Source of the DNA: Acinetobacter equi
GTDB lineage: Bacteria > Pseudomonadota > Gammaproteobacteria > Pseudomonadales > Moraxellaceae
Assembly (NCBI RefSeq): GCF_001307195.1
Contig: NZ_CP012808.1
Location: 1,798,001-1,862,000 of the forward strand
Reading direction: 5' to 3'
Length of the DNA stretch: 64,000 nucleotides
A program made the position numbers and the translations under genes. The notes below the pieces were generated by a model that was not told the DNA's origin, searched no databases, and worked only from the letters and a program-made list of their open reading frames with translations. Positions 8,304 to 31,992 of this stretch are shown piece after piece (position 1 is the stretch's first letter; each line of letters begins with the position of its first letter).

Positions 8304-8330
8304 TGGTTGAATAATAGACTATTATGATAA

Positions 8331-8356
8331 GGGATGATGTAAATCATCCCTTTTTT
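8331..8356 (+). terminator. terminator after efp
   Basis: GGGATGAT at 8331-8338 pairs with ATCATCCC at 8343-8350, followed by six T. Confidence 0.9.
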
Positions 8357-8478
8357 AATGCCAAAGTATTAGAGTAAATGATAATAATAGGAGTAAAGTC
8401 GCATAAATAGAAATCACAGTGCCTCATATCAATAAAATTGTGCTGATTAATTTAAATATGTAAGTTAGAGGGATTGAC

Positions 8479-10581
8479 ATGGACTCAGTTCAACAGAAGT
8501 CATCAATGGCTTCAAAAATAATATGGCTACTTGTCGCTATATTAGGTGCCGTATCATTTGGAATACTAGCGATTAGCCGAGGAGAGCATGTAAATGCCGT
8601 TTGGTTAATTTTAGCTGCAGCTTGTGTTTATAGTATTGCTTATCGGTTCTATAGTTTATTTATTGCCAATAAAGTTTTTGAATTAAATGAACGTCGTTTA
8701 ACACCAGCCCATCGTATGAATGATGGTTTAGATTATGTTCCAACAAATAAAAGTGTTTTATTTGGGCACCACTTTGCCGCTATTGCAGGTGCTGGTCCCT
8801 TGGTTGGTCCAATTTTAGCTGCACAAATGGGTTATTTGCCTGGAACAATCTGGCTGTTGGTTGGTGTTGTTTTAGCAGGTGCAGTTCAAGACTTTTTAGT
8901 TCTTTTTATTTCGACTCGTCGAGATGGTCGTTCATTAGGTGAAATGGCAAAACAAGAGCTAGGTTCTTTTGCTGGAATTATCGTTATGCTTGGTGCACTA
9001 GGCGTGATGATTATCATTTTAGCGGTACTTGCACTTGTGGTTGTAAAGGCATTAACAAATAGCCCGTGGGGTGTATTTAGTATTGCAGCAACAGTACCAA
9101 TTGCAATTTTTATGGGCATTTATATGCGATATATTCGCCCAGGTCGAATTGCAGAAGTTTCTATCATTGGTTTCGTTCTGATGATGGCAGGTATTATTTA
9201 CGGTGGAGATGTAGCACAACATCCTTACTGGGGACCATTCTTTACATTATCAGGTACAGAGTTAACTTGGTGGTTAATTGGATATGGTTTCGTTGCATCA
9301 GTATTACCCGTTTGGTTGTTATTGGCTCCGCGTGATTACTTATCTACATTCTTAAAAATTGGTGTCATTGCGGGTCTTGCAATTGGTATTTTATTTGCAA
9401 TGCCAGAAATGAAAATGCCAGCCATTACTCAATTTGTGGATGGTACAGGTCCTGTTTTTGCTGGTTCATTATTCCCATTCTTATTTATTACAATTGCCTG
9501 TGGTGCTATTTCAGGTTTCCACGCCTTGGTTTCTTCTGGAACAACGCCAAAACTTGTGAATAACGAAAAAGATATTCGCATGATTGGTTATGGCGGTATG
9601 TTAATGGAATCTTTTGTTGCAATTATGGCTTTAGTCTGTGCAACAATTTTAGATCCAGGTGTATATTTTGCGATTAACTCCCCAGCAGCATTATTAGGTA
9701 CAACCGTTGAGTCTGCAGCAGAAGCGGTAAGAAATTTAGGTTTTGTAGTAACACCTGAAGCATTAACTTTACTTGCCCAAGAGGTTGGTGAAAACTCAAT
9801 TTTATCTCGTACTGGTGGTGCACCGACCTTTGCAATTGGTATGGCGCATATCATTACTGAGATATTTAACAGCCGTGAAATGATGGCATTTTGGTACCAC
9901 TTTGCCATTTTATTTGAAGCATTATTTATTTTAACAGCTGTAGATGCTGGTACTCGTGCATGCCGTTTTATGGTGCAAGATACTGTTGGTATTGTGATTC
10001 CTGCTGTAAAAAATTCACATAACCTTTTTGGTAATATGTTGGGTACAGCTGTAGCAGTTGCTGGATGGGGCTTCTTTGTTTATCAAGGTGTGGTTGATCC
10101 ATTAGGCGGTATTAATAGCTTATGGCCACTCTTTGGTATTGGTAACCAAATTCTTGCAGCAATGGCATTGATTTTGGGTACAGTAATTCTATTCAAAATG
10201 AAAAAGCAGAAATATGTTTGGGTTACTATTATTCCGACAGTATTCTTATTTATTACTTCAATGACAGCGGGTTGGCAGAAAATTTTCCACGAAAATCCAA
10301 AAATTGGTTTCTTAGCACAAGCAGATCGTTTCTCTGATGCTATTGCTCGTGGTGAAATTTTGAAACCAGCAACTTCAATGGCCGAAATGCAAAATATTGT
10401 ATTATCAAATCAAATTAATGCAGCATTATGTGCATTCTTTATGATTGTAGCTGTAGTTATGCTAATTGCTGCAATTGGAGTTATTCGCCGTGCACTTGCA
10501 AATCCTGAACCATCAGTAAATGAAGCAGAAGCTATTTATGTTGATCCTGCTGAATTAGAGCCACCAAAAGCAGCTCATTAA
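8479..10581 (+). CDS. cstA: carbon starvation protein A (CstA/BtsT) peptide or pyruvate transporter
   Basis: A 700-residue polytopic inner-membrane protein of the CstA family (PF02554), with about 16-18 hydrophobic segments. Diagnostic stretches include GHHFAAIAGAGPLVGPILAAQMGY (about residues 96-119), VQDFLVLFISTRRDGRSLGEMA and SGFHALVSSGTTPK. E. coli relatives are CstA (peptide uptake in starvation) and BtsT (pyruvate/H+ symport). Which substrate applies here cannot be told from sequence. The start ATG follows AGAGGGATTGAC. A small YbdD/YjiX protein follows after 13 bases, the usual partner arrangement. The gene is separated from efp by a terminator and about 120 AT-rich bases. Confidence 0.92.
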   Translation: MDSVQQKSSMASKIIWLLVAILGAVSFGILAISRGEHVNAVWLILAAACVYSIAYRFYSLFIANKVFELNERRLTPAHRMNDGLDYVPTNKSVLFGHHFAAIAGAGPLVGPILAAQMGYLPGTIWLLVGVVLAGAVQDFLVLFISTRRDGRSLGEMAKQELGSFAGIIVMLGALGVMIIILAVLALVVVKALTNSPWGVFSIAATVPIAIFMGIYMRYIRPGRIAEVSIIGFVLMMAGIIYGGDVAQHPYWGPFFTLSGTELTWWLIGYGFVASVLPVWLLLAPRDYLSTFLKIGVIAGLAIGILFAMPEMKMPAITQFVDGTGPVFAGSLFPFLFITIACGAISGFHALVSSGTTPKLVNNEKDIRMIGYGGMLMESFVAIMALVCATILDPGVYFAINSPAALLGTTVESAAEAVRNLGFVVTPEALTLLAQEVGENSILSRTGGAPTFAIGMAHIITEIFNSREMMAFWYHFAILFEALFILTAVDAGTRACRFMVQDTVGIVIPAVKNSHNLFGNMLGTAVAVAGWGFFVYQGVVDPLGGINSLWPLFGIGNQILAAMALILGTVILFKMKKQKYVWVTIIPTVFLFITSMTAGWQKIFHENPKIGFLAQADRFSDAIARGEILKPATSMAEMQNIVLSNQINAALCAFFMIVAVVMLIAAIGVIRRALANPEPSVNEAEAIYVDPAELEPPKAAH

Positions 10582-10594
10582 AAGGGGATATGAA

Positions 10595-10897
10595 ATGAAC
10601 CTTAAGTTTGCAAAAAATGGAAAGGCTGTAATTTATAAAATCATTAAGATGACCATTATGTCGCAAAAAGACCTAATTCTAAATCCAAAGAATTGGTCTA
10701 GAATTGCAACATTGTGGCAACGACTACAGCAAAGTTTTCGTTTAATGGTTGGTGTTCCTGATTATCAAAATTATTTGGAACATATGAAAAAACATCATCC
10801 TGACTTAGAAGCAATGGATGCAAAAACATTCTATCGTTATTGCGTGGATAGTCGTTATCCAAGTGCAGGCAGTAGTATGAAAAAATGTCCATGCTAA
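10595..10897 (+). CDS. YbdD/YjiX family small protein, CstA partner
   Basis: Small protein of the PF04328 family that nearly always follows cstA or btsT and is thought to assist the transporter. The conserved core runs from about residue 35, with MVGVPDYQNYLEHMKKHHPD and the C-terminal RYCVDSRYPSAGSSMKKCPC. It has 100 residues from the ATG at 10595, somewhat longer than the usual 65-75. That start has a good AAGGGG ribosome site. An internal ATG at 10658 would give a more typical length. Spacing of 13 bases from cstA suggests one transcript. Confidence 0.88.
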   Translation: MNLKFAKNGKAVIYKIIKMTIMSQKDLILNPKNWSRIATLWQRLQQSFRLMVGVPDYQNYLEHMKKHHPDLEAMDAKTFYRYCVDSRYPSAGSSMKKCPC

Positions 10898-10927
10898 GTG
10901 TGAAAATATAAGTTTTTAATTCAAAAA

Positions 10928-10952
10928 GCCAGATGAAATATCTGGCTTTTTT
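10928..10952 (+). terminator. terminator after cstA operon
   Basis: GCCAGAT at 10928-10934 pairs with ATCTGGC at 10940-10946, followed by TTTTTTA. A-rich sequence on the other side may let it work for the convergent barrel gene too. Confidence 0.88.
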
Positions 10953-10973
10953 ATTCAATGATCTTGAATTAAT

Positions 10974-11654
10974 TTAAAAAGAATATGCAATCCCAGCTTT
11001 AGCAACGGGATGCCATTTAAAAAAGAAATTATCATTTAATTCATAATGTGTGAATTTTGGATCTGCTTTTACTTCATTGTTATTAATATGAGTTAAGCGA
11101 ACAGTAGGTGAGCCTGTATAATATATGCCAATTTCAAAGAAGCCACTCCAATTCAAATTAAATTTTGGTGACAGTCCTACACCTAAATAAGGTGCAATGG
11201 GGTTTCCATAATCCAATAATCCTTTTGCATCAATCTCAAAGTTTTTAGGAATAAATTTATTTAATTGACTAGGGCGTGCTTCTCCAACTTTAAAATTTTG
11301 ATGAATATCATAATTATCACCAATGTACCCAATTCCTATAGTGGTATGAAAAGCCTGTAACCAGTTATTGGGACTATATGTCCATGGTCGAAAAGTTGTG
11401 TTGATATATGTTCTATTATTATTCATTTCAATGTTATAGCGAATTCCATTAATTTTTATATTATTTTTCCAGTTTACCTGACCACCATTATAACCTAGAG
11501 CAAGACTTATATAAGGATTAACATTATAGATAATGGCTCCACCATAACCAGATAAACCACCTTCAGTTCGAATAGAAAAATCTGTTGTAGCATAAGCTAA
11601 TGTCGATGAAACAGTTAGTAAGTTTGTTACGCAAATGAGTAGGATGCTTTTCAT
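10974..11654 (-). CDS. outer-membrane beta-barrel protein
   Basis: A 226-residue exported protein. The first 22 residues form a signal peptide (MKSILLICVTNLLTVSSTLA, then YA). The rest is alternating polar and aromatic residues with many Asn and Gly, and it ends in Phe (AGIAYSF), the usual outer-membrane insertion signal. Segments such as APYLGVGLSPKFNLNWSGFFEIGIYYTG resemble strands of 8-stranded OmpA/OmpW-like barrels. No periplasmic OmpA domain is present. Function is unknown. It is convergent with the cstA operon and has a long AT-rich region upstream. Confidence 0.75.
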   Translation of the reverse strand: MKSILLICVTNLLTVSSTLAYATTDFSIRTEGGLSGYGGAIIYNVNPYISLALGYNGGQVNWKNNIKINGIRYNIEMNNNRTYINTTFRPWTYSPNNWLQAFHTTIGIGYIGDNYDIHQNFKVGEARPSQLNKFIPKNFEIDAKGLLDYGNPIAPYLGVGLSPKFNLNWSGFFEIGIYYTGSPTVRLTHINNNEVKADPKFTHYELNDNFFFKWHPVAKAGIAYSF

Positions 11655-12160
11655 TATTGAGCCTTATCAATGTTTATATGTTATAAAGTTTGAGTTTTAA
11701 ATTTTTATTATTAATTTTGATAATTTAAGACACTAATATATTAGTAACATTAATAATTGTTAAGATTGTAAGATATTGTTTTTAAAATTATTTTTAAATG
11801 TAAAAGATTAAGGGTACTCGCATGATATTTAAATATAAATTACATAAAAAATCACATAAATATAACAGATATTAAATTTTGTTCTAAAAAGTAAAAAAGA
11901 AAATAATAGAGTCTTTCATAAGTTACTTTTTAATCTAATAAGAATCATAGAACTTGAATCAAAAGACAAGAAGTATAAGACTTAGAGCCCTTTACTGATT
12001 AATAAGAATACAATTATGAAAGAGGGGCAGTATATTATTTACTTTATGGAGTGAATTTCTTTAAATGTGTTTAAAATAAGATCAATGACAAGGATGCTAA
12101 AAAATCTAGGAAAAAGCACTTGTTTTACATCTTAAAATTGAATATGATTCTGCACACTTT
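11655..12160. other. AT-rich intergenic region before tRNA-Val
   Basis: About 500 bases with very low GC. No open frame of plausible size, ribosome site or family match is visible. It presumably contains promoters for the barrel gene (leftward) and for the tRNA (rightward), but no clear -35/-10 pair stands out. Confidence 0.5.
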
Positions 12161-12237
12161 AGGTGTATAGCTCAGTTGGTTAGAGCGCTACGTTGACATC
12201 GTAGAGGTCTCCAGTTCGAATCTGGATATACCTACCA
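12161..12237 (+). tRNA. tRNA-Val (anticodon GAC), 3' half supplied by prophage
   Basis: A complete 77-base cloverleaf with encoded CCA. The acceptor stem AGGTGTA pairs with TATACCT. The D arm is GCTC/GAGC, the anticodon arm is CTACG-TTGACAT-CGTAG with anticodon GAC (valine codons GUC/GUU), and the T arm is TCCAG-TTCGAAT-CTGGA. A prophage integrase is encoded just downstream and a second copy of the 3' half sits at 33,179. The present T arm therefore probably came from the phage, while the displaced host T arm (AGCAG-TTCGAGT-CTGCT) lies at the far end. Confidence 0.95.
12188..12209 (+). repeat. attL core (22-base direct repeat with attR)
   Basis: The repeat covers the tRNA anticodon stem-loop and variable region and is identical to 33179-33200. 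Beyond it the two ends remain similar but not identical for about 150 bases. The perfect block therefore marks the likely strand-exchange region over the anticodon arm. Confidence 0.9.
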
Positions 12238-12260
12238 AGATTCAAAGCCAGAAATGGTAA

Positions 12261-12299
12261 GGGTTTTAAGCGAAATCAGTAGCTTAAAGCCCTTTTTTT
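12261..12299 (+). terminator. terminator of tRNA-Val at attL
   Basis: GGGTTTTAAGC at 12261-12271 pairs with GCTTAAAGCCC at 12282-12292 (one G-T), followed by seven T. A diverged copy lies at attR (33252-33290). Confidence 0.88.
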
Positions 12300-12373
12300 A
12301 TGTCTATAATAATATATGTTAATATCTGCCTATTCGGCTTAAAGGGCGAATTAAGCCGATTCTGCCGAATAAT

Positions 12374-12413
12374 TTACGTCAAATTTACGTCAAGAATTTT
12401 GAGTTTTACGTCA
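12374..12413 (+). promoter_or_regulatory. three TTACGTCA repeats, putative integrase arm-type sites
   Basis: TTACGTCA occurs at 12374-12381, 12385-12392 and 12406-12413, all in the same orientation and 11 and 21 bases apart, that is about one and two helical turns. Two more copies with the same 11-base spacing lie near the right end (33125 and 33136). The last left copy ends in the A of the int ATG. This fits arm-type binding sites of a tyrosine integrase that could also repress its own gene; this is inference. Confidence 0.65.
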
Positions 12414-13423
12414 TGAAAATACCAAAACCTAGAAAGCGTGGTGAAGCTTATTACATCGAGATCATGATTGATGGAAAACGCTCATCTGCAACTCGTGACA
12501 CAGCCAAAGAATGTGAACAATGGGCAGCACAAAAAATACTTGAAGCTAAAGCAAATAAATTGGCAGAAGACCAAGGTGTAAAACAGCATTACCCATTTAA
12601 AACACTTTTTTATAAATACTACGATGAAGTGGGTAAAAAGCTTCGCGGTTCAATTTATGTAAAAGAACAATTAAAACCATTTGAAGAAAAGTTTGGTGCA
12701 CTGGCAGAAATGTCGATTCATGAAATTACACCAAAGCATTTAACTGCCTGGAGAAACAAACGAGCAAAAGAAGTGGGAGCGAATACCTTACTTCGTGAAA
12801 TGGCTTTATATAGTTCTGTTTTTAGTTATGCAGTAAAGGAGCTATTTTTGCTTGATGTGAATCCGTGGACCAATGTCAAAAAACCAGTAAAGCCTAAAGC
12901 TCGTCATCGTCGTATTCGAGATAATGAAATACAGTTAATTCTTGAATCATTAAATTACAGTGAAGGGCAGACACCAACTGAACCAGATCATTATGTTGCA
13001 TGGGCATTTTTATTTGCACTTGAAACAGCAATGCGTCGTGGTGAAATTCTTGGTATTCAAATGACAGATATTTTTGATCGTCATGTACATTTACCAAAAA
13101 CAAAAAATGGTGATGCTCGTAATGTGCCATTAACTAAAAAGGCATTAGCTCTTTTAGATCTGATTGAACATGATGGACCTAAACTTATTCCACAGTCAGA
13201 AAATGCATTTAGATTAATGTGGGAAAGAAGAAAGGCGAAAGTAGGATTAGAAGATATTCATTTTCATGATGCACGACATGAAGCGATTACAAGATTTGTG
13301 AATAATCAAAAATTGCCTGTTGAGGTATTAGCGAAAGTGACAGGGCATAAGAACATTAAAGTGTTAGTGAATACTTATTACAATCCTGATGTGAATGATA
13401 TTGCAGATATGTTGGATGCGTAA
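12413..13423 (+). CDS. int: prophage tyrosine integrase
   Basis: Site-specific recombinase of 336 residues that joins phage and host att sites. Catalytic residues visible are Arg208 (ETAMRRGEIL), the beta-hairpin Lys near 229-231, His285-x-x-Arg288 (HDARHE), His312 (TGHKN) and Tyr322 or Tyr323. The first 45 residues form a small basic beta-rich arm-binding domain, and about 60-150 a SAM-like core-binding domain. It lies immediately inside attL and reads away from the tRNA. The ATG at 12413 overlaps a TTACGTCA repeat. The protein appears intact, so integrase activity may persist although the prophage is deleted. Confidence 0.95.
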   Translation: MKIPKPRKRGEAYYIEIMIDGKRSSATRDTAKECEQWAAQKILEAKANKLAEDQGVKQHYPFKTLFYKYYDEVGKKLRGSIYVKEQLKPFEEKFGALAEMSIHEITPKHLTAWRNKRAKEVGANTLLREMALYSSVFSYAVKELFLLDVNPWTNVKKPVKPKARHRRIRDNEIQLILESLNYSEGQTPTEPDHYVAWAFLFALETAMRRGEILGIQMTDIFDRHVHLPKTKNGDARNVPLTKKALALLDLIEHDGPKLIPQSENAFRLMWERRKAKVGLEDIHFHDARHEAITRFVNNQKLPVEVLAKVTGHKNIKVLVNTYYNPDVNDIADMLDA

Positions 13424-13458
13424 AATAAGGGGTATACATAAAATGTACCCCCTTTGAT

Positions 13459-13740
13459 TTAATTCTTTCTTGGTCGTCTATTTTTTGATGTCTTCTGCCC
13501 TAAAATTAAATGAGCTTCATCAGGTTTGTATTTACATTTTCGCCCAACACCACGATTAATAGATACAAGTCTATCTCGAACAGTATCTTCACTAATTCCA
13601 TACTTAACAGCTAATTCCTGTGGCGATACAAATTCAGGACTTACATCTTTAATGGCCACAACTTTTGCACCACCAGCAACTTCAGCACCAATAAAAAGTT
13701 GAGGTACATCACCAGTGACAGTAATTTGATACACTCCCAT
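13459..13740 (-). CDS. small phage HTH protein (possible excisionase or regulator)
   Basis: A 93-residue protein starting at the ATG at 13740. The C-terminal half contains a helix-turn-helix-like stretch (SPQELAVKYGISEDTVRDRLVSIN, about residues 37-60) followed by a very basic tail (SKNRRPRKN). The N-terminal half (GVYQITVTGDVPQLFIG) looks beta-stranded. Its start overlaps the stop of the upstream methyltransferase remnant as TGATG, suggesting translational coupling. It is convergent with int. Position beside int and size would fit an excisionase or small regulator, but no specific family is recognised. Confidence 0.6.
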   Translation of the reverse strand: MGVYQITVTGDVPQLFIGAEVAGGAKVVAIKDVSPEFVSPQELAVKYGISEDTVRDRLVSINRGVGRKCKYKPDEAHLILGQKTSKNRRPRKN

Positions 13741-14174
13741 CAACAAACCTCCTTCAAACGTTCCACCTTTATAAATGTCATCCAATGTGTATTGGCACGT
13801 TTTCCACTAATGTGGCCAAACAAAGGTTTTTGATCTGTTAGCTTTAAAATTTCAGAAACCTTAATTTGAGTTTCATTCCATTTAAAAATCAAAACACCAT
13901 CAGTGGCCAACACACGGAAACATTCTGAAAAGCCTTTTCTTAAATCTTCACGCCAATCATTTTCAAGCTTTCCATATTTCAGGGCCAACCAAGATTGCTT
14001 GCCTGCACGTACTAAGTGTGGCGGATCAAAAACGACTAATTTAAATTGGCCATCATCAAAAGGCATATTACGAAAGTCCATTTCAACATCTGGACTAACT
14101 TCTAATGAGCGACCATCACAAAGAATATGGTTTTCAGTTCTAATATCGCCAAAAACAACATTTTCATTTTGAGA
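13740..14174 (-). pseudogene. 5'-truncated phage class I SAM methyltransferase
   Basis: The minus-strand frame reads as the C-terminal two thirds of a phage methyltransferase, with FGDIRTE, a DPP catalytic motif in VVFDPPHLVRAG, FRVLATDGVLIFKWNE and a C-terminal HISGKRANTHWMTF. The N-terminal SAM-binding motif I is missing. Upstream of about 14174 the frame continues to a chance ATG at 14228, but those residues are the antisense of the capsid gene, not a methyltransferase. The gene was therefore cut by a deletion joining it head to head to the capsid gene. A short chimeric protein might still be made but should lack cofactor binding. Confidence 0.8.
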
Positions 14175-14229
14175 GTTTAAAACCCAGGTTGATGCTGTAA
14201 AAGCGATTGCCGAAGAATACAAAGGCAAA

Positions 14230-15300
14230 ATGGCTCACAACGACAAAATTACAGCTGAAGCAAAAGCCCAAGCTGATGATGCCTTAACAAAACTGAATGA
14301 AACTAAAAGCCAGTTGCAAGATTTGGCTCAAAAAATGTCACGTCGACAAAATGATGGTGATCCTGAAGTTAAATCAGGTGGTCGTGAATTTGTTGAAAGT
14401 GCTGAATATAAAGCTGCAGCTGAATCGGAATTTAAAGGTATTACTCGTCGTGAGCTTAAAAATACGATTGGTACCACTGAAGTGGCAGGGAATATTCAAC
14501 CAACTAATCTTGGTTTGATTTTACCAAATCAACAGCGTTTAACAATTCGTGATCTGCTTGCTGGTGGGAAAATGTCTGGCAACTCTCTTGAATATGTTCA
14601 GGAAGCTGGCTTTACCAATAATGCAGCAGTGGTAGCTGAAAAAGGCAATAAACCTGAATCTGCAATCACTTTTGAAGACAAAGACGCAAAAGCTGTTGTA
14701 ATTGCTCATTGGTTAAAGGTCACTACTCAGATGCTGAGTGACGCTCCTGCGCTTGAGTCATACATTAACAACCGTTTACGTCATGGACTTGATATTAAAC
14801 TTGAAAATCAAATCCTTAAAGGTGATGGGACATCAGGGAATATCGCAGGTCTTCTAACACAAGCCACTGAATACGCTCCTCCTGCTGGTGTCACTGGTGC
14901 CAATATGTTTGATGTGTTGCGCTACGCGATGCTTCAAGTTGTTTTAGCGGATGATTATGCAAATGGTCATGTTCTTAACCCTATCGATTGGGCAATCATG
15001 GAGACCACTAAAGATGAAAATGGACGCTATTTGATTGGTGATCCTCAATCTAAAGCAGTTCCTACGCTTTGGGGCTTGCCAGTGGTCCAAACTCAAGCGA
15101 TGGATGCTGGTAGTTTCTTGACAGGAGCATTTAATACTGCTGCTCAATACTTTGAGCGTTGGGGAGCGTCTGTGCAGCTAGGATTGACTGGTGATGATTT
15201 CACATCAAACAAACGTACAATCCTTGCTGAAACTCGTGGTGCATTAGCTGTGTATCGTCCTGAATCATTAATCTATGGTTCTTATGTTCCTAGTCCTTAA
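14230..15300 (+). CDS. phage major capsid protein, HK97 fold, 5' end lost
   Basis: HK97-type capsid subunit (PF05065). The N-terminal coiled region (about residues 1-55) is the scaffold-like delta domain. The mature shell domain begins near TTEVAGNIQPTNLG, with ITFEDKDAKAVVIAHWLKVT and GTSGNIAGLL as typical stretches. The open frame extends upstream of the ATG as KTQVDAVKAIAEEYKGK to a stop at 14170-14172, which reads as genuine capsid sequence without its start codon. The first residues and the native ribosome site were thus removed by the deletion; AAAGG before the ATG at 14230 may allow partial expression. Terminase, portal and protease genes that should precede it are absent. Confidence 0.85.
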   Translation: MAHNDKITAEAKAQADDALTKLNETKSQLQDLAQKMSRRQNDGDPEVKSGGREFVESAEYKAAAESEFKGITRRELKNTIGTTEVAGNIQPTNLGLILPNQQRLTIRDLLAGGKMSGNSLEYVQEAGFTNNAAVVAEKGNKPESAITFEDKDAKAVVIAHWLKVTTQMLSDAPALESYINNRLRHGLDIKLENQILKGDGTSGNIAGLLTQATEYAPPAGVTGANMFDVLRYAMLQVVLADDYANGHVLNPIDWAIMETTKDENGRYLIGDPQSKAVPTLWGLPVVQTQAMDAGSFLTGAFNTAAQYFERWGASVQLGLTGDDFTSNKRTILAETRGALAVYRPESLIYGSYVPSP

Positions 15301-24471: not shown

Positions 24472-24792
24472 ATGTCTATCGACAACTTATTAGATCGTAC
24501 ATGGTCCAAAGGCTACACATGTAATGAATTTGCTTGTGAAGCGTGGAAGCAAATTACAGGTAAAGACTTAAGCAAACGGATTTATAAAGTATTAAACGGT
24601 AAAGGTCGATTTAAAAGACTGGAAGAACCTATTTCGCCTTGTTTGGTTTTATTTAAAAACGATGATCGAAGCCCTACTCATGTAGGGCTTTTTTATTGCG
24701 ACAAACTTTTGCATTTAACGCCTCGTGGTGTGCAATTCATACCACTTGAAGTGGTAGCTATGCACTTTAAAGAAGTGAGATATTACACATGA
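24472..24792 (+). CDS. NlpC/P60-like tail peptidoglycan peptidase, minimal
   Basis: A 106-residue protein from the ATG at 24472; an in-frame GTG at 24460 would add four residues. It resembles a minimal NlpC/P60 cysteine peptidase such as the C-terminal domain of lambda gpK. The nucleophile is probably Cys17 in GYTCNEFACEAW, and the His lies in PTHVGLFYCDKLLHL. It is much shorter than typical NlpC/P60 domains and the third polar residue is not obvious, so activity is uncertain. It overlaps the TipJ gene by 4 bases, the usual gpK-gpI-gpJ location. Confidence 0.65.
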   Translation: MSIDNLLDRTWSKGYTCNEFACEAWKQITGKDLSKRIYKVLNGKGRFKRLEEPISPCLVLFKNDDRSPTHVGLFYCDKLLHLTPRGVQFIPLEVVAMHFKEVRYYT

Positions 24793-27659
24793 AAAAAGTC
24801 ATCATCATACGTGATCAGTTTGCTAAAGATAAAATCGAAGCTTATGTTGATGATGTGTGTAAGTATTTGGCTGAACAGTTTGATGTATTCCCTGAAAATG
24901 CACAGATTTATCATAATCAGATTTCTGAACAAACAAATATCACACCTAAAACAGAAGCAGATATTGAGCGTTTAAAACAATTAGATGGTGTATTTTGGGT
25001 TGTGATTCACCCTGCTTGGTGGATGGTTGTCTTTTGGGTGGTTACCGCTGTTATGGCGGCATATAGCGTATATATGATCGCTACAATGCCCAAACAAAAT
25101 GGACAAGGTTCTGTCGGCTCATCAAATAACGAACTGGCAAATCGATCTAATAAAGCGCGAGTTAAAAGTCGGATCCCTGATATTTTTGGTACTGTTCTTT
25201 CATTCCCTGATCTGATTGCGGAAATCTATACCTATTATGAAAATGGCATTGAAATTGAAGAATGTCTAATGGTTATTGGCCGTGGATATTATGATGTTCA
25301 TGAATGTAAAGATGGCGATACTGCAATTGAGGGAATTGAAGGTGCTTCAATCAGTGTTTATGATCCGAATGTATCAATCACTAGCAACACAACAATTTAT
25401 CGTACAGGCACAGCATTCACTACGGCACCAAGAGCTGTAAGAAAATCAGATGCCATCAATGGTCAATCTTTAGTACAGCCAAATGATTTAAGCCTTGAGT
25501 CCAGTTCATTATATTTTATGACTGGTGGTGTGATTAGAAGCACAGCAAATATCGATTTCACTACTTATTTTAAAGTAGGTGATGGCATTGCAATTACTGG
25601 TGCTGCTTTCGGGATTAATGATGCTTCACTTTCAGGTACGGCTGTATTAACGCCTGATTTTAAAGTTATTGTGCAAAGTAGTGTTGATATTGAGGCTTAT
25701 GATGCCTACAAGGGATTATTACTCAATGGTGCCTTATTTGAATATATTGTTGAAGAAACTACTATTGATCCTGAAACAGAAGAATCTACAACTGTTGTGG
25801 TAGAGCGAGCAACTCGTGATGCATCTGGTCAGTATGAAGTGAGTAGTGTGACTCGAATTCAAAGTGGTTCGATTTATACCTACACAATTCAATTATCTAA
25901 TCCAAAACAAGTAAATTACAGTTGGAATGATATTTCTGAAAATCAAACGATTAGTGCAGGTATTACACTTAATCTAAATGCTAATTCCATGACACTTGAT
26001 GATATTTACTCTATCAGTGCGATTAGCTCAACTCAAATTACTCTTGCAAATGCTGCTACCGTAAATGCCGAATGGTTGAAACTTCCAACAATGTTTAATG
26101 GTAGTACACAAGGCAGACAAGCCAATGTTGATTTAGAAATTGTGGCCAATAAATGGGTTGGTTGGTTTAACTTAGATTTTGATCAAGCTACACAAGCTGT
26201 ATTTAATGTGTATGCACCGCAAGGGATGTATGCAACAACAGATTCAGGTGGTGAGCGAGAAGCTGGTTGTACAATCACGGTGCAATATCAAATGCTTGAT
26301 GAAAATAAAAATCCAGTGGGTGAAATTGTCACAAGGGAATGGGAGATTTGGAATAAAACCAAATCAAGTTTTGGGCGTACAGCTCGTTATGATTTACCAA
26401 GTAAAGGTAGCTTTCGTTTTCGACTTGCTAAGACTTATGCAAAGCAAAATAACCGACCTGTTACCGAAGTAAAAATTAAAAGTGTTTATGCAACTTATGC
26501 TTCTTCAAAACGTAATTATCCTGATGTGACTGTTTTACGTTTAAAAACGGTTGCAACTGATGGGGCATTATCAGTTAAAGAACGTAAATTAAATTGTCTT
26601 GTTACTCGTAAACTTAAAACAGATGGTACTGGTGCTTTAGTTGCTACGCGTGATGCAGGGCAAGCACTGATTAATATGGCTTTGGATCAATATGTTGGGA
26701 GACGTTCTAGCTCTGAATTAGATATTGCTCAAATTAAGTCTGAAATTCAAAAGGTGAAGAATTACTTTGGTTCTGATGTTGCAACTGAATTCAACTATAC
26801 CTTTGATGATGACAACTTAAGTTTTGAAGAAATGGCAGGAATGGTTGCTTCAGCATGTTTTTGTGAGACTTATCGCTATGGCAATAAGTTACGAATGAAG
26901 TTTGAAGGACCACAAGATAATTCAGTTCTTTTATTCAATCATCGTAATAAAGTACCCGGTAGTGAAAAGCGTACTTTTAGTATCGGTATTGATAAAGATT
27001 ATGATGGTGTTGAGCTTGAATACACATCACCAGATGATGATCTTAAAACAACTTATTCAATCCCTGAAGATGGTTCAGCACGTAATCCTTTAAAGATTAC
27101 AACTTCGGGCATTCGCAATCATGCAGTTGCTAAAACAAGGGCGTGGAGAGAATGGAATAAGCTTTTATATCAGAATTTGAGTTGTGAGTTTGATGCGCTT
27201 GACGAATCTAATTTATTGGTTAGAAATGATCGTATTTTAGTTGCTGATAATACAGAGCTTAAAACTCGTGATGGTCAGGTGGAGTATGTTGATGGATTAA
27301 CATTGAAGTTATCTCAATTTATTGAAGATCCTTATTCAAAACAATTTGGCAATGTTGAGATAATGGAAGGCAAGACCTATTACATCTACTTGCAAATGCA
27401 AAATGCAACAATAGATATGATTAGTTGTGTTGCTGGTAATGAGCCAGATGAAGTTATTTTGAGTCGTGCACCTCTTCAATCTCTTGTTATTGATGAGGAT
27501 CGCTATATCAAGACAACCTATTTACTAGTCGAAGCTCAAGAAGCAGATAAACAAGCATTCTTACTCACCGAAGCTAGTCCTAATGATGAGATGACGAATA
27601 AGCTGACATGCATTAACTACGATTCTCGTTATTACGAAAAAGATAAAGCATTTATTTAA
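24789..27659 (+). CDS. TipJ-family tail tip / host-specificity protein
   Basis: A 956-residue protein at the position of lambda gpJ. Residues about 73-97 form a hydrophobic segment (WWMVVFWVVTAVMAAYSVYMIA), as found in gpI-like tail assembly proteins, suggesting the gpI part is fused or lost. Then SRIPDIFGTVLSFPDLIAEIYTYY and ECLMVIGRGYYDVHE give the TipJ signature. The middle has beta-rich repeats, and the end contains a phage tail hub-like region (about 640-830: RRSSSELDIAQIKSEI, EEMAGMVASACFCETYR). A terminator follows. It likely contacts the receptor or supports the fibre. Confidence 0.85.
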   Translation: MKKVIIIRDQFAKDKIEAYVDDVCKYLAEQFDVFPENAQIYHNQISEQTNITPKTEADIERLKQLDGVFWVVIHPAWWMVVFWVVTAVMAAYSVYMIATMPKQNGQGSVGSSNNELANRSNKARVKSRIPDIFGTVLSFPDLIAEIYTYYENGIEIEECLMVIGRGYYDVHECKDGDTAIEGIEGASISVYDPNVSITSNTTIYRTGTAFTTAPRAVRKSDAINGQSLVQPNDLSLESSSLYFMTGGVIRSTANIDFTTYFKVGDGIAITGAAFGINDASLSGTAVLTPDFKVIVQSSVDIEAYDAYKGLLLNGALFEYIVEETTIDPETEESTTVVVERATRDASGQYEVSSVTRIQSGSIYTYTIQLSNPKQVNYSWNDISENQTISAGITLNLNANSMTLDDIYSISAISSTQITLANAATVNAEWLKLPTMFNGSTQGRQANVDLEIVANKWVGWFNLDFDQATQAVFNVYAPQGMYATTDSGGEREAGCTITVQYQMLDENKNPVGEIVTREWEIWNKTKSSFGRTARYDLPSKGSFRFRLAKTYAKQNNRPVTEVKIKSVYATYASSKRNYPDVTVLRLKTVATDGALSVKERKLNCLVTRKLKTDGTGALVATRDAGQALINMALDQYVGRRSSSELDIAQIKSEIQKVKNYFGSDVATEFNYTFDDDNLSFEEMAGMVASACFCETYRYGNKLRMKFEGPQDNSVLLFNHRNKVPGSEKRTFSIGIDKDYDGVELEYTSPDDDLKTTYSIPEDGSARNPLKITTSGIRNHAVAKTRAWREWNKLLYQNLSCEFDALDESNLLVRNDRILVADNTELKTRDGQVEYVDGLTLKLSQFIEDPYSKQFGNVEIMEGKTYYIYLQMQNATIDMISCVAGNEPDEVILSRAPLQSLVIDEDRYIKTTYLLVEAQEADKQAFLLTEASPNDEMTNKLTCINYDSRYYEKDKAFI

Positions 27660-27676
27660 AATTTAAACCTTATAAG

Positions 27677-27699
27677 GCACTCGAAAGAGTGCTTTTTTT
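27677..27699 (+). terminator. terminator after tail-tip gene
   Basis: GCACTC (27677-27682) pairs with GAGTGC (27687-27692) over a GAAA tetraloop, followed by seven T. Confidence 0.9.
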
Positions 27700-27716: not shown

Positions 27717-29252
27717 ATGGGGATTGTTACGGTCGATAAACTAGAGAATGCTGATAAAGATGCAGATGCTCTTGATACGTTTATCAATGGTGCAGACACA
27801 GCGACAGTCACAACACGTAAAAGTAAGAAATATCCAACACTTGCCAACGCTGTAAAACAAGTAATTGAAACTGGTGGATTTGAACCATTTGCTACTGAAA
27901 CAGCTTTGCTTGCAAGCAGACCAACTATTACCAAGAAAGCAGCCAAGGCTTTAGATACTAAAAAAGTTTGGTTGTGGGATGGCACTCAATGGAATGATAC
28001 TGGGTTGAGTGAATATGATTTGGCTAAGAGAGATATAAACAAAGTATCTCAAAAAGTGGATACCAAGCTAACCATCAAGTACGACTTTCATTCGATAGAA
28101 AACACACCATCATTTGTTGTTATCAATGAGGATTTAAAAGTAATTAATACATTAGCACCTAATATTGTTATGGATTTTCATTCAGATGCTAGCGAATCCG
28201 ATCTTTTTTTTGCGGATGAAAATTTAAAAGAACTTAAGCCCCAACAAGAAGGTTCAGGGTTGGATGTTGAAAACATTCCAAACAACGAACAAGGACTTGG
28301 AGAACCTTATGTTGATAATCATTATTTAAAAGTATCTCGTAAAGATTATCCAAACTATTACTTCAACACATCGCAATCAGTAATCACGCATGCTGATGAT
28401 GTGTACGCTTTTTATGACAACTTAATGTCACAGAATCCTGATTACATCACAAAGACCACACTAGGTGCAGACACAGAAGGATACCCGATTTACGGATACA
28501 CTTTCACGCCACCACCAAAACTGTATTGGGGTGGTCATACTGCTGAAAGTGTTCAACCACCTGAAATTGTAATAACTTCTGGTGTGCATGGTGCTGAAAA
28601 AATGGGAATCATTGCAGGAATGTCTTTCTTTGATAATCTGGTGAATTACTGGAATACGGAAGAGTATTACGACAAGTTGCGCTTCTCTTGTAAATTTACA
28701 ATTTACCCAGCTTGTAACCCTTACGGTATTCGCTCAAATACTCGTGGTAATGTAAACGGTGTTGATTTAAATCGTAACTTTGATGTGAATTGGGATGGCG
28801 CTGGAAGTACAGATCCATCTGATGTGAACTATAAAGGTTCGGCACCTTTTTCTGAAATAGAGACGCAATTATTAGCAACAATTCCCGACTTACACCCAAA
28901 TGCAAATCTATTTATGGACTTACATCAGCAAGGTGAAGTGTATTTATTTTGGTTTGGGACAATCTTAGATCAAACAATTACAACAGTTGTTGAGTCTTTG
29001 AATGATATGACAACGTATCTCTACAAGCATATAAAACCTGAATCAGACTTACAACAAACGCTATGTCGTCTTGCATACAATGGTGAAGGCACACTTGCTC
29101 GATATTTTCAGCTTGTAAAAAACAAAGCAACTATCTTGATTGAAATGTCGTCATCAAACCACCCAATGCTGACAGGGAAATGGGTTGATGCTCGAAAAGT
29201 TGCAGAAAAATCTATCGTAACAGTCGTTAAAAACTTCATAAAAAATGTTTAG
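27717..29252 (+). CDS. tail fibre with C-terminal M14 zinc carboxypeptidase domain
   Basis: A 511-residue protein just after TipJ. Residues 1-110 look like a phage fibre anchor (GIVTVDKLENADKDADALDTF and a VWLWDGTQWNDTG repeat). From about 220 onward it carries a full set of M14 metallocarboxypeptidase residues: zinc ligands His291 and Glu294 (SGVHGAEKMG) and His403 (FMDLHQQGE), substrate Arg353 in DLNRNF, the PFSEIETQ element at 377-384, and catalytic Glu476 (ILIEMSS). The domain seems complete and active. It could trim host surface peptides or the stem peptide of peptidoglycan during infection; substrate is unknown. Ribosome site GGAG at 27703. Confidence 0.85.
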   Translation: MGIVTVDKLENADKDADALDTFINGADTATVTTRKSKKYPTLANAVKQVIETGGFEPFATETALLASRPTITKKAAKALDTKKVWLWDGTQWNDTGLSEYDLAKRDINKVSQKVDTKLTIKYDFHSIENTPSFVVINEDLKVINTLAPNIVMDFHSDASESDLFFADENLKELKPQQEGSGLDVENIPNNEQGLGEPYVDNHYLKVSRKDYPNYYFNTSQSVITHADDVYAFYDNLMSQNPDYITKTTLGADTEGYPIYGYTFTPPPKLYWGGHTAESVQPPEIVITSGVHGAEKMGIIAGMSFFDNLVNYWNTEEYYDKLRFSCKFTIYPACNPYGIRSNTRGNVNGVDLNRNFDVNWDGAGSTDPSDVNYKGSAPFSEIETQLLATIPDLHPNANLFMDLHQQGEVYLFWFGTILDQTITTVVESLNDMTTYLYKHIKPESDLQQTLCRLAYNGEGTLARYFQLVKNKATILIEMSSSNHPMLTGKWVDARKVAEKSIVTVVKNFIKNV

Positions 29253-29262
29253 GAATTAAAAA

Positions 29263-30018
29263 ATGATTACATATCAAATTATTGAAGGCGCAAAGGCAAG
29301 TAAGAATGCTAAGAAATTCACACCAAGTCCAGAAGGTGTTGCAATGGCGAATATTCCTGGTTGGGAATTGCTGATCGATCCTGATCATGTAACCAGTAGC
29401 ACAGTTCAAAATCGCTGTATCCGTAATACTTTTTGTGAGTTGGTATCAGGGAGTATCAACCTTGGAACATTTGCAAATGGTCAAAAAGCTTTTAATCCAA
29501 CCGATGCTCTACCAATTCGTATTAACCCGAATTTAGAATTTCCAATTGATGCATGGTCACTTATTTTTGTAGCTAAGCCTGATGTAAAAACTGGTGTTGA
29601 TTTAAACACCATTATCACAGCTAATACTTATACAGCAGATAAGATCACACCAAGTGTGGCTTTTTCAGCATCAACCACAACCTTCCGCATCATGAAAGGT
29701 GGTGCATTGTCTGATTTAGAGAGACGATTAACATACACACCAAGTGTTCCATTATCGGAAAAAGTGAGTGTTTATATTGTTACAGGTTCAATTGCAAATG
29801 GTTTAGCAATCTATCAAGATGGGGTGCTTGTAGCAAGCAACTCAAATAAGGACTTGATAAATGATCAATGGCAAGCTGGTGAATGGAATATATTGCGTGG
29901 AGCGCGTGGTTTATTCGGCATGATTGGTTTACTTTCTATTGATCTGAATGACCCTTTAAATGCTGAATACAGGAATCAGATGAATGATTTTTTAATGCAA
30001 AAATACGCCATCGTATAA
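29263..30018 (+). CDS. putative tail protein with concanavalin-like lectin fold
   Basis: A 251-residue protein 10 bases after the M14 fibre, probably on the same transcript. Its second half (about 95-235) has the strand pattern of LamG/concanavalin-type domains, with DAWSLIFVAKPD, KVSVYIVTGSIANGLAIYQDGVLVA and a final GLFGMIGLLSIDLNDPLNAEYRNQMNDFLMQKYA helix. Such domains bind carbohydrates and occur in phage receptor-binding proteins. I recognise no named family, so the lectin idea is inference from strand pattern. A hairpin follows. Confidence 0.6.
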   Translation: MITYQIIEGAKASKNAKKFTPSPEGVAMANIPGWELLIDPDHVTSSTVQNRCIRNTFCELVSGSINLGTFANGQKAFNPTDALPIRINPNLEFPIDAWSLIFVAKPDVKTGVDLNTIITANTYTADKITPSVAFSASTTTFRIMKGGALSDLERRLTYTPSVPLSEKVSVYIVTGSIANGLAIYQDGVLVASNSNKDLINDQWQAGEWNILRGARGLFGMIGLLSIDLNDPLNAEYRNQMNDFLMQKYAIV

Positions 30019-30034
30019 ATCAGCAAGCTTTAGA

Positions 30035-30060
30035 TACCCCTAGCTTAAAGCTAGGGTATA
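30035..30060 (+). terminator. hairpin after the fibre genes
   Basis: CCCTAGCT (30038-30045) pairs with AGCTAGGG (30049-30056) with AT pairs outside. No strict T-run follows, only AT-rich sequence with a second weak stem around 30070-30090. Confidence 0.6.
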
Positions 30061-30166
30061 TAAAGTAATAATTATTATTTTGAATAATAATAAGTGTTTT
30101 TATATTGGAAGTTAAATATAAAAAAATGATAGGCTATTGATATTATTATTTATATTAGATGGCTTT

Positions 30167-31162
30167 ATGTACACGGAAATTATTCGAGATATTCAAAAAG
30201 ATAAACTATCCCCTTTATCAATGAAAGACTCCACAGCTTCGCATCTATATGGTTTTTATCAGGCTTGTAAGGAATTGGGGTTAGAATATGAGAAACATAA
30301 AAATCATTTTTTAATTAAAAGCCCATATAACGATTCATATATTGGTGGCGTTTCAGGCATGGTGAGTAGTTTTGTATCTAGTTTTGCATTGCGTGTCTGT
30401 GGGGATAAAGAATTAACTCATAAAATTTTGGCTGCAAATGACATTCAAGTACCTAAACAATATTCTTTTTCTAAAAATGATTTAGATGGTGCTATTGAGT
30501 GCTTTAAAAAATATAATTTAACAGTTGTAAAGCCTTCGGATGGCTCTGGCGGTAAAGGTATTACAATTGGAGTAAATGGTATTGATGAGTTTAAAAAAGC
30601 ATTTCAATATGCGGTTGAAAATACAGGTCAAAACGGACGAGTATTAGTTGAGGAAAAAATTGATGGCTTTGATATAAGGGTTATTGTTGTTAATGGAAAA
30701 TTTGATTGTGCTATTTGTCGAATTCCAGCACATGTAATTGGTGATGGGGTTAAAACAGTGGCTCAACTTGTGAGTGAAAAAAATGAGGCAAGAAGCAAGC
30801 ATCCTCATCATAAGGCTTTTCCAATAATAATTAAGCCCTCTCTAGATGAGAGAATTGTCCCTCACGAAGGTGAGATATTATTTTTAAGTAGTGCGGCTAA
30901 TATTCATCAAGGTGGAGAAGCATTGGATGTTACTGAATATGTAGGTAATGATATTCGAAATTTATCTATAAAGGTTGCTAAGTCTGTACGTGGTTTAAAT
31001 GTTGTAGGAATTGATTTCTATCTGAAGGATTTCAAAGATCCTACAGCCGCTTATGTTTTAGAACTAAATACAGCAGCTAATTTTTCTATACATTATTTCC
31101 CTTATTATGGGAAAAAAAGAAATCCTGCTTTAGCTATTGTTAAAGATATGTTGGCTATGTAA
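30167..31162 (+). CDS. ATP-grasp ligase (phage accessory gene)
   Basis: A 331-residue ATP-grasp enzyme from the ATG at 30167; an in-frame TTG at 30137 would add ten hydrophobic residues. The ATP-grasp core shows LTVVKPSDGSGGKGITIGV (about 120-138), RVLVEEKIDGFDIRVIVVNGK (about 165-185) and the Mg-binding end VVGIDFYLKD and VLELNTAANFSIHYFP. It resembles the cyanophycin-synthetase / glutathione-ligase group that joins an acyl-phosphate to an amine. The substrate is unknown. It lies between two hairpins and is more AT-rich than the tail genes, so it looks like an independently acquired moron between fibre and lysis genes. Confidence 0.78.
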   Translation: MYTEIIRDIQKDKLSPLSMKDSTASHLYGFYQACKELGLEYEKHKNHFLIKSPYNDSYIGGVSGMVSSFVSSFALRVCGDKELTHKILAANDIQVPKQYSFSKNDLDGAIECFKKYNLTVVKPSDGSGGKGITIGVNGIDEFKKAFQYAVENTGQNGRVLVEEKIDGFDIRVIVVNGKFDCAICRIPAHVIGDGVKTVAQLVSEKNEARSKHPHHKAFPIIIKPSLDERIVPHEGEILFLSSAANIHQGGEALDVTEYVGNDIRNLSIKVAKSVRGLNVVGIDFYLKDFKDPTAAYVLELNTAANFSIHYFPYYGKKRNPALAIVKDMLAM

Positions 31163-31189
31163 AAAATTAACCCAACAAATCCAAACACA

Positions 31190-31221
31190 CCCCGACTTTT
31201 AATAAAGATCGGGGTTTTTTA
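31190..31221 (+). terminator. terminator after ATP-grasp gene
   Basis: CCCCGA (31190-31195) pairs with TCGGGG (31209-31214), followed by six T. Confidence 0.85.
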
Positions 31222-31244: not shown

Positions 31245-31502
31245 ATGTCTGAAAAAGTTCATTTATTCGCGGAAACTTCTGCAGCAGCAATTGGCTCTAA
31301 AGCTTCATTTGGTGGAGGTGCTGCAAGTTTTGTTGCCTTCTTTGCTGGTATTAATTGGATTGGTTGGTTATCGCTTGGAATTGCAATTTTAGGTTTGATT
31401 ATTAATGCCTATTTTTCTTGTCAGCGCAATCACCGTGAAAAAGAAATCCATCGCTTAAAAGTAAAACAATTAAAGGATCAGTGTGATGCAAAACAAGACT
31501 AA
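31245..31502 (+). CDS. phage holin
   Basis: An 85-residue membrane protein at the head of the lysis cassette. It has two predicted membrane segments (about 24-38 FGGGAASFVAFFAGI and 42-58 WLSLGIAILGLIINAYF) followed by a charged cytoplasmic tail (QRNHREKEIHRLKVKQLKDQ), the layout of small class II holins. The endolysin gene begins before its stop codon (overlap of about 17 bases). It would permeabilise or depolarise the inner membrane and so activate the SAR endolysin. Confidence 0.83.
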   Translation: MSEKVHLFAETSAAAIGSKASFGGGAASFVAFFAGINWIGWLSLGIAILGLIINAYFSCQRNHREKEIHRLKVKQLKDQCDAKQD

Positions 31503-31992
31503 ATATTTAGCAGTAGTTTTAACCGCTTCACTTGGTTTCTTTGTCGGCTTAGAAAAATACGAAGGCTTTTCTGCTAAACCATATAAAGATACTGGTGGAG
31601 TGGTCACACAAGGTATTGGCTCAACAGTCAAGCCTGATGGCTCAAAAATCAAAATGACCGACAAGCCGATTGACCGTAAAACTGCACAGGAATGGGCGAA
31701 AGCTCATGTATCGAAAGATGAGACAGCATTTAAAAAGTCATTACAAGGCGTGAAACTATCCCAGACTGAATATGACGTTTATCTCGATTTTACATACAAC
31801 TTTGGGCAAGCAAATTGGAATAAGTCTGCAATGCTTACTAATTTAAAATTAGGGCGATATGAGCAGGCTTGTAAGTCTCTTTTACTCTATAGATATGTTA
31901 AGAAAAAAGATTGTTCAATCCGATCCAATAACTGTTGGGGTGTTTGGGTGCGTCAGAAAGAACGCTACGACAATTGTATGGGGGCGCAATGA
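31486..31992 (+). CDS. SAR-type endolysin, GH24 lysozyme
   Basis: A 168-residue lysozyme of the T4/P21 type that cleaves the glycan strands. Numbered from this ATG, the catalytic triad is Glu26 (YEGF), Asp35 (YKDTGG) and Thr41, with the 9- and 6-residue spacings of T4 lysozyme. The N-terminus is a weakly hydrophobic segment (YLAVVLTASLGFFVGL), which fits a signal-arrest-release anchor. A GTG at 31483 is an alternative start. The C-terminal part has several Cys. It overlaps the holin gene upstream and the Rz gene downstream (ATGA). Confidence 0.92.
   Translation: MQNKTKYLAVVLTASLGFFVGLEKYEGFSAKPYKDTGGVVTQGIGSTVKPDGSKIKMTDKPIDRKTAQEWAKAHVSKDETAFKKSLQGVKLSQTEYDVYLDFTYNFGQANWNKSAMLTNLKLGRYEQACKSLLLYRYVKKKDCSIRSNNCWGVWVRQKERYDNCMGAQ

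What the first reader, a model, noticed from the sequence alone, without database searches (positions are those of the whole stretch)
27717..31162. Fibre-linked M14 carboxypeptidase next to a lectin-like protein and an ATP-grasp ligase: possible peptide-editing cassette
The gene after TipJ encodes a fibre-type N-terminus followed by an M14 carboxypeptidase domain with every active-site residue kept (His291, Glu294, His403, Arg353, Glu476). A lectin-like protein and then an ATP-grasp ligase of the cyanophycin/glutathione-ligase type follow before the lysis genes. Peptidase plus ATP-grasp pairs elsewhere (for example RimK-type systems) add and remove amino acids. A tail that trims host surface or wall peptides, paired with a ligase that modifies host or virion proteins, would be a new phage-host strategy. 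The ligase sits between hairpins, so the link may be only positional.
Basis: partly seen in the sequence, partly recalled or inferred. Interest (0 to 1): 0.72.

Follow-up and report, generated by a model that had tools for sequence, protein, structure and literature searches.

The report
Carboxypeptidase tail fibre, capsule-ligase-like cargo gene
A virus remnant in an Acinetobacter-type chromosome carries a tail fibre tipped with an intact zinc carboxypeptidase, a sugar-binding-type partner protein and a separate enzyme gene related to ones that attach small molecules to bacterial capsule sugars, so the virus family may both strip and rewrite its host's coat.

Summary
Observation confirmed, with corrections. 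27717-29252 is a tail fibre with an intact M14 (carboxypeptidase A-type) domain; 29263-30018 is a ConA/LamG-fold protein; the ATP-grasp ligase starts at ATG 30167, not 30137.

The M14 + ligase cassette is only partly supported. Fibre and lectin-like gene are a fixed pair (4 of 4 M14-fibre prophages found in 175 genomes of the genus). A ligase follows in 2 of those 4 and occurs once without M14 (18 complete slots, one-sided p = 0.11). In the window hairpins bound it, like a separate cargo gene.

A wider reading fits better. The same fibre anchor carries interchangeable surface-acting domains (M14, S11, GDSL, GH43, CotH). Three prophages have different ATP-grasp ligases here; one has two whose relatives lie in a Kps capsule locus of the genus. 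The host's own Kps locus encodes a TupA-like ligase. A TupA-like domain amidates capsule glucuronate in Campylobacter, and prophages convert A. baumannii capsules.

I read the pair as a tail enzyme for amide-linked groups on a surface polymer plus a probable capsule-converting ligase. That both act on one bond is apt but unproven. The prophage looks defective (no terminase or portal found).

The parts
27717..29252 (+). tail fibre, 511 aa: conserved anchor (about residues 1-120), spacer, M14 carboxypeptidase domain
28392..29249 (+). M14 (carboxypeptidase A-type) catalytic domain with H291, E294, N352-R353, H403, E476
29263..30018 (+). ConA/LamG-like jelly-roll protein, 251 aa, fixed partner of the M14 fibre
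30167..31162 (+). stand-alone ATP-grasp carboxylate-amine ligase, 331 aa; putative metal ligands D283, E299, N301 conserved
30027..30066 (+). hairpin between lectin-like gene and ATP-grasp gene
   Evidence: z -4.0
31189..31221 (+). intrinsic-terminator-like hairpin and T run after the ATP-grasp gene
   Evidence: z -3.95; not listed by the scan
27674..27695 (+). terminator-like hairpin between tail tip gene and fibre gene
   Evidence: z -2.2
24789..27659 (+). TipJ-type tail tip protein, 956 aa
   Evidence: phrog_469 E 1.2e-243
31245..31502 (+). holin
31483..31992 (+). endolysin (phage lysozyme)
31989..32498 (+). Rz-like spanin (ORF opens at 31935; ATG 31989)
12413..13423 (+). prophage integrase next to tRNA-Val (12161-12237)
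14230..15300 (+). major head protein; no ORF of terminase or portal size between it and the integrase

Best explanation
The locus is the receptor-module exchange slot of a siphovirus-type prophage. Shown: one conserved fibre anchor carries swappable, mostly enzyme-like domains; here it is an intact M14 carboxypeptidase, followed by a jelly-roll lectin-like protein in all four M14-fibre loci; the space around the fibre, up to the lysis genes, holds ATP-grasp ligases in three prophages, and in the window the ligase gene is bounded by hairpins. Inferred: the tail enzyme removes an amide-linked residue with a free carboxylate from a surface polymer, most likely an amino-acid-decorated capsule or glycopeptide, during adsorption. 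Inferred: the ligase, expressed in the lysogen, uses ATP to join an amine or amino acid to a carboxylate of the host's capsule or its sugar precursor, so that the lysogen's coat is altered (lysogenic conversion, receptor masking). Forming and cutting such amides are the opposite chemistries of the two enzyme classes. Whether they address the same bond in the same host is not shown.
For: M14 fold and invariant active site. Among 20 fibres with the same anchor: M14 in 4, GDSL in 3, S11 in 1, CotH in 1, GH43 in 1, weak alpha/beta hydrolase in 1, DUF7265 in 2, no Pfam hit in 5, not scanned 2 (the M14 of three by the m14 profile). Phage fEg-Aba01 has a matching anchor with an acetylesterase (SASA) domain, then a protein its record calls ConA-like, then holin (Pfam itself gave no hit for that second protein). 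ATP-grasps at the fibre: window, G111:C27, G111:C14. [quoted passage not shown] A Kps-type capsule locus of the genus (G163) contains a TupA-like ATP-grasp, DUF6270 and an ATP-grasp beside two Capsule_synth (KpsC/KpsS-type) proteins, WecB/WecC-type enzymes and glycosyltransferases. The C14 prophage ATP-grasp is 37% identical over 358 aa to that capsule ATP-grasp, its TupA is 31% to that TupA and 62% over 77 aa to a broken TupA beside G111's own kps genes; a DUF6270 occurs in another fibre locus. The host has a syntenic Kps locus with the TupA-like ligase and WecB/WecC (ManNAcA) genes, plus TviB and a TviC-like enzyme in its second polysaccharide locus. The window ligase's Rhodobacteraceae relatives (40% and 37%) lie next to a group-1 glycosyltransferase. 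Literature passages: a TupA-like ATP-grasp domain amidates capsular glucuronate in Campylobacter (PMC11800379); prophage genes alter A. baumannii capsule (PMC6586298, PMC9241936, PMC12053666). Halomonas phage YPHTV-1: M14 tail gene, then genes annotated O-antigen ligase and O-acetyltransferase.
Against: M14-ATP-grasp association is not significant (2 of 4; p 0.11), and of the 5 slots with M14 fibre or ligase 4 come from one genome (G111). The window ligase itself is only 27% identical to the G163 capsule ATP-grasp and its alignment covers 205 aa; its closest curated model is cyanophycin synthetase. The host Kps locus shows no A1-profile ATP-grasp. No promoter stands out: 19 sites in the region against 25.6 expected by chance. 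Five of 20 anchor fibres have no recognised domain. Peptidoglycan or protein remains a possible M14 substrate. The prophage looks defective, so the fibre may no longer be under selection.
Confidence: 0.5

Rival explanations
1. The M14 fibre is a wall-directed enzyme: it trims peptidoglycan stem peptides at the entry site, like murein tripeptide amidase MpaA. The neighbouring ligase is unrelated.
For: MpaA is the best NCBIfam match although far below cut-off (25.9 against 157 bits). In G082 the fibre carries an S11 D,D-carboxypeptidase-like domain and the slot has free S11 and M14 genes. In Stenotrophomonas phage BUCT702 a gene annotated peptidoglycan DD-metalloendopeptidase lies two genes before the M14 gene.
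Against: Of 9 non-M14 anchor fibres with any Pfam hit only 1 (S11) is of a wall-peptidase family; the rest are GDSL 3, CotH, GH43, weak alpha/beta hydrolase and DUF7265 2. The fixed jelly-roll partner suggests a surface ligand. Structural neighbours at the top are carboxypeptidases A/B/O, though MpaA not being listed excludes nothing.
Confidence: 0.22
2. The ATP-grasp gene is a free-riding moron that makes a peptide-type metabolite or modifies a protein (RimK, cyanophycin or R2K style), with no tie to the capsule or the fibre.
For: Closest models are cyanophycin synthetase, GshAB and RimK. Hairpins bound the gene; its GC3 (0.19) is below that of fibre (0.29) and lectin-like gene (0.27) and a little below tail tip, tape measure and holin genes (0.22-0.23). 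R2K ATP-grasp ligases in phages have been proposed to modify host proteins (PMC4431377, PMC7824862, passages).
Against: Three different ATP-grasp arrangements sit at the same fibre position, one beside a glycosyltransferase and a TupA homologue. Of 6 ORFs in 175 genomes with E below 1e-8 to the window ligase, 3 are at fibres (window included) and 1 is in a Kps capsule locus; the other 2 are a 916-aa frame whose context was not examined and an acylphosphatase fusion near adenylosuccinate lyase.
Confidence: 0.25
3. The ligase modifies the phage's own fibre or lectin-like protein (for example C-terminal amino acid addition), and the M14 domain edits virion proteins.
For: Adjacent position and late-gene surroundings.
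Against: The fibre-lectin pair exists without the ligase in 2 of 4 prophages.
Confidence: 0.05

Closest known systems
Phage tail-cluster 'zinc carboxypeptidases' (PHROG 4722; Staphylococcus phages StB20/StB12, Bacillus phages Page/Moonbeam, Halomonas phage YPHTV-1, Stenotrophomonas phage BUCT702)
   Same: M14 domain in a protein of the tail gene cluster of a tailed phage; 27-36% identity over the matched part
   Different: no match to the window's anchor, lectin-like protein or ATP-grasp profile in the six stretches read; none of their annotations names an ATP-grasp gene
PghP/PghL poly-gamma-glutamate hydrolases of phage origin
   Same: zinc, carboxypeptidase-like fold, phage-derived enzyme against an amide-bonded capsule (PMC6506827, passages); StB20 has a gene annotated poly-gamma-glutamate hydrolase in the same tail cluster as its M14 gene
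   Different: another family (MEROPS M86, per PMC6506827); not among the window protein's Pfam hits
TupA-like and other ATP-grasp ligases of capsule loci (Campylobacter Cj1438 C-terminal domain; Kps locus of G163)
   Same: ATP-grasp fold, carboxylate-amine ligation, company of glycosyltransferases; homologues at a sister prophage's fibre
   Different: the window ligase is CphA/RimK-like, with no TupA hit in Pfam and only 27% identity to the G163 capsule ATP-grasp
Prophage capsule-conversion genes of A. baumannii (atr29/atr30, wzyPh1, epaA-epaB)
   Same: prophage gene changes the lysogen's capsule (PMC6586298, PMC9241936, PMC12053666, passages)
   Different: acetylation, polymer linkage or epimerisation, not amide ligation; their place within the prophage relative to the fibre was not given in the passages read

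Membership tests
Peptidase family M14 (carboxypeptidase A type) | HxxE...H zinc ligands and catalytic Glu | tested here: met
   H291, E294, H403, E476 invariant in 15 of 15; Pfam 100.2 bits against cut-off 21.6
Peptidase family M14 (carboxypeptidase A type) | NR(N) motif binding the C-terminal carboxylate | tested here: met
   N352-R353 invariant, aligned to the CPA motif; residue role recalled
Peptidase family M14 (carboxypeptidase A type) | carboxypeptidase fold | tested here: met
Peptidase family M14 (carboxypeptidase A type) | zinc-dependent release of C-terminal residues | not testable with these tools
   needs enzyme assay
ATP-grasp ligase | ATP-grasp domain with Lys pair, glycine loop and metal ligands | tested here: met
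   K81, K122, G129, G131, D283, E299, N301 invariant in 10 of 10; RimK, ATP-grasp_3 and others above Pfam cut-offs; residue roles assigned from recalled ATP-grasp chemistry
Cyanophycin synthetase | full two-ligase protein (ATP-grasp plus C-terminal Mur-ligase domain) | tested here: not met
   331 aa; TIGR02068 179 bits against cut-off 850; domain make-up of the full enzyme recalled
RimK family | score over the NCBIfam RimK-family cut-off | tested here: not met
   64.7 bits against 143.4; the Pfam RimK domain cut-off is passed
TupA-like capsule amidating ligase | PF14305 match | tested here: not met
   absent from window protein hits at E up to 0.1; present in sister prophage L044 and in the host Kps locus
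ConA/LamG lectin-like fold | jelly-roll fold | tested here: met
   pLDDT 84.4; tailspike and ConA-like matches; glycan binding not tested
Lysogenic capsule-conversion cargo | changes capsule chemistry of the lysogen | not testable with these tools
   needs capsule chemistry with and without the gene
Dedicated M14 + ATP-grasp cassette | significant co-occurrence across related prophages | tested here: inconclusive
   2 of 4 M14 slots, 3 of 18 slots with ligase, p 0.11; relatives few and not independent

The most novel reading that the evidence does not exclude
A write-and-erase pair for capsule amides: the prophage's ATP-grasp ligase adds an amino acid or amine to carboxylates of the host's Kps or Wzy polysaccharide (the host encodes WecB/WecC, TviB, a TviC-like enzyme and a TupA-like ligase), while the tail fibre's M14 carboxypeptidase hydrolyses amino-acid amides of that class when infecting. 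It would be a peptide-bond counterpart of the known pairing of O-antigen-cutting tailspikes with O-antigen-modifying prophage genes (recalled, P22-like phages), with cargo ligases moving between kps loci and prophage fibre slots.
Probability: 0.2. Interest if true: 0.82.

Novelty: new variant of a known kind. Interest (0 to 1): 0.52.

Why it matters
If right, amino-acid decoration of capsules becomes a phage receptor determinant with its own tail enzyme and its own prophage-borne writer. The listings of the paper searches made here (open-licence library only, listings not all read) showed no paper describing such a pair. It would add amide ligation to the known prophage routes of capsule change (acetylation, polymer linkage, epimerisation), affect how capsule type is predicted from genomes, and give a tool enzyme for removing amino acids from polysaccharides. 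It also makes one thing testable now: which capsules carry the amides that TupA-like ligases, present in 30 of 175 genomes of the genus, should make.

Tried and rejected
Close relatives in viral contigs: none confirmed with the fibre, the ligase, or alignments A1 and A2. Near-identical phage DNA for 14000-34500: none. The 9 phage records matching the ATP-grasp are unannotated Listeria, Enterococcus or unnamed records; that they are host gshAB-like DNA is my inference from host genus and 27-30% identity, not tested; they are not counted as phage evidence. Lectin-like protein in the phage collection: no match. Lectin family across 348 family genomes: 3 genomes (G000, G111, and G034 with a fragment holding a stop).

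Counting rules: two slots at contig ends (L075, L079) were left out of the 18; L075 has a GDSL fibre and a DUF6270 gene. L043 (G111:C27) has no tail tip gene on its contig but its slot is complete downstream; it was found by the M14 search. Three further tail-tip matches at contig ends were not fetched whole (G030:C14, G090:C25, G111:C22). L083's fibre was not scanned by Pfam; the script labels it after L082. G111 gives 4 of the 18 slots, so the counts are not independent. Sixteen fetched tail-tip loci without this fibre anchor showed no A1-profile ATP-grasp among the + strand ORFs printed to about 9.5 kb downstream and are not in the 18. Free-standing M14 ORFs of G076, G120 and G155 had no tail tip or fibre match nearby and are not counted.

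Considered and dropped: that the window ligase is an orthologue of the capsule ATP-grasp (27% only); that contig-length coincidences (20035 for P0002 and P0031; 6072 for P0041 and P0030) prove linkage - suggestive only, since contig names were not shown; substrate-pocket prediction from recalled CPA numbering, too weak; a TupA/M14-fibre association by genome (2 of 2), too few cases and G111's chromosomal copy is broken.
Full report

Setting. The region is a prophage: integrase next to tRNA-Val, a methyltransferase-like ORF (about 162 aa), major head protein, connectors, tape measure, tail tip, fibre, lectin-like, ligase, holin, endolysin, Rz. No terminase or portal gene lies between integrase and head gene, so the prophage is probably defective; terminase elsewhere in the genome was not searched for. 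No second copy of the last 14-30 bases of the tRNA was found in the window.

Census. Tail tip relatives (E up to 1e-30) occur in 29 of 175 genomes of the genus. Thirty-six loci including the window were read; 20 carry a fibre with the window's anchor. Their domains: M14 4, GDSL 3, S11 1, CotH 1, GH43 1, weak alpha/beta hydrolase 1, DUF7265 2, no Pfam hit 5, not scanned 2. Isolated phage fEg-Aba01 shows the same layout with an acetylesterase domain and a partner its record calls ConA-like. The M14 domain therefore occupies a position often filled by other surface-acting enzymes. The lectin-like family follows the M14 fibre in 4 of 4; a fifth member (G111:C6) is cut off on the fibre side.

Ligases at the fibre. 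Of 18 complete slots, 3 have ATP-grasp genes: the window, G111:C27 (758 aa, two ATP-grasp parts plus acylphosphatase) and G111:C14 (TupA-like upstream of the fibre, RimK-like downstream, then GT-D and GH10). M14 and ligase coincide in 2 (p 0.108). The cassette idea in its strict form is thus not supported.

Link to capsule. G163 has a Kps-type locus with Poly_export, WecB- and WecC-type enzymes, glycosyltransferases, TupA-like ATP-grasp, DUF6270, an ATP-grasp and two Capsule_synth proteins. G111:C14's ATP-grasp is 37% identical to that ATP-grasp over 358 aa; the prophage TupA and the L075 DUF6270 are 31% and 32% identical to their capsule-locus counterparts. G111's own kps region holds a broken TupA stretch 62% identical over 77 aa to the prophage one. 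The window's host has the syntenic Kps locus with TupA (64% to G163's); DUF6270 and the ATP-grasp are not between its TupA and GT2 genes. Its Wzy-type locus has TviB (above cut-off) and a TviC-like epimerase (below cut-off). TupA-like ATP-grasps occur in 30 of 175 genomes. The window ligase's nearest named relatives in the genome collection, in Tabrizicola (40%) and an uncultured Rhodobacter (37%), lie beside a group-1 glycosyltransferase and a beta-helix protein; in Tabrizicola ParA/ParB-type genes precede them. A 42% relative is named from Vibrio metschnikovii, context unknown.

Literature (passages only, unless stated). The TupA-like domain of Cj1438 amidates capsular glucuronic acid (PMC11800379). 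The title of a K17 paper states a D-alanine amide of GalNAcA in an A. baumannii capsule; it was seen only in reference lists. Prophage-borne genes alter A. baumannii capsule (PMC6586298, PMC9241936, PMC12053666; PMC13228068 by search listing and an empty term search). R2K ATP-grasps in phages are proposed to modify host proteins (PMC4431377, PMC7824862), which supports a rival. Iyer et al. 2009 on amidoligases could not be read.

Mechanism. A carboxypeptidase needs an amide to a residue with a free carboxylate; an ATP-grasp ligase makes amides through an acyl phosphate (established chemistry, recalled). Uronic-acid amino-acid amides would fit both. Shown: anatomy, intact active sites, domain exchange on one anchor, capsule-locus homology of a sister prophage's ligases. 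Inferred: substrates, expression in the lysogen, receptor role. That the ligase acts on other targets or the M14 on the wall remains open at roughly 0.25 and 0.22.

Noticed in passing
window 12413-14230: Integrase, then a roughly 162-aa DNA methyltransferase-like ORF, then directly the major head protein: early genes, terminase and portal are missing here, so the prophage looks deleted.
   Followed up: partly
L044 (G111:C14) 6900-14652: TupA-like ATP-grasp, second ATP-grasp, GT-D glycosyltransferase and a GH10-family protein around a fibre without a recognised domain.
   Followed up: partly
L055 (G082:C2) 9439-13928: Fibre with an S11 D,D-carboxypeptidase-like domain, plus free S11 and free M14 genes before the lysis genes.
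   Followed up: partly
L072 (G082:C22) 11300-13282: Tail fibre carrying a CotH kinase domain (E 4e-13), unusual for a receptor module.
   Followed up: no
L135 and L100 against L060: Syntenic Kps capsule loci in two species differ by presence of DUF6270 plus an ATP-grasp gene between TupA and a GT2 gene.
   Followed up: partly
L043 9252-11528: 758-aa protein with two ATP-grasp parts and a C-terminal acylphosphatase domain; a 357-aa relative (51% over 331 aa) sits near adenylosuccinate lyase in G117 (L059).
   Followed up: partly
L067 (Halomonas phage YPHTV-1): M14 gene followed by genes annotated O-antigen ligase and O-acetyltransferase inside the tail gene cluster.
   Followed up: no
L065 (Staphylococcus phage StB20): M14 tail protein and a gene annotated poly-gamma-glutamate hydrolase lie close together, one gene between them.
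   Followed up: no
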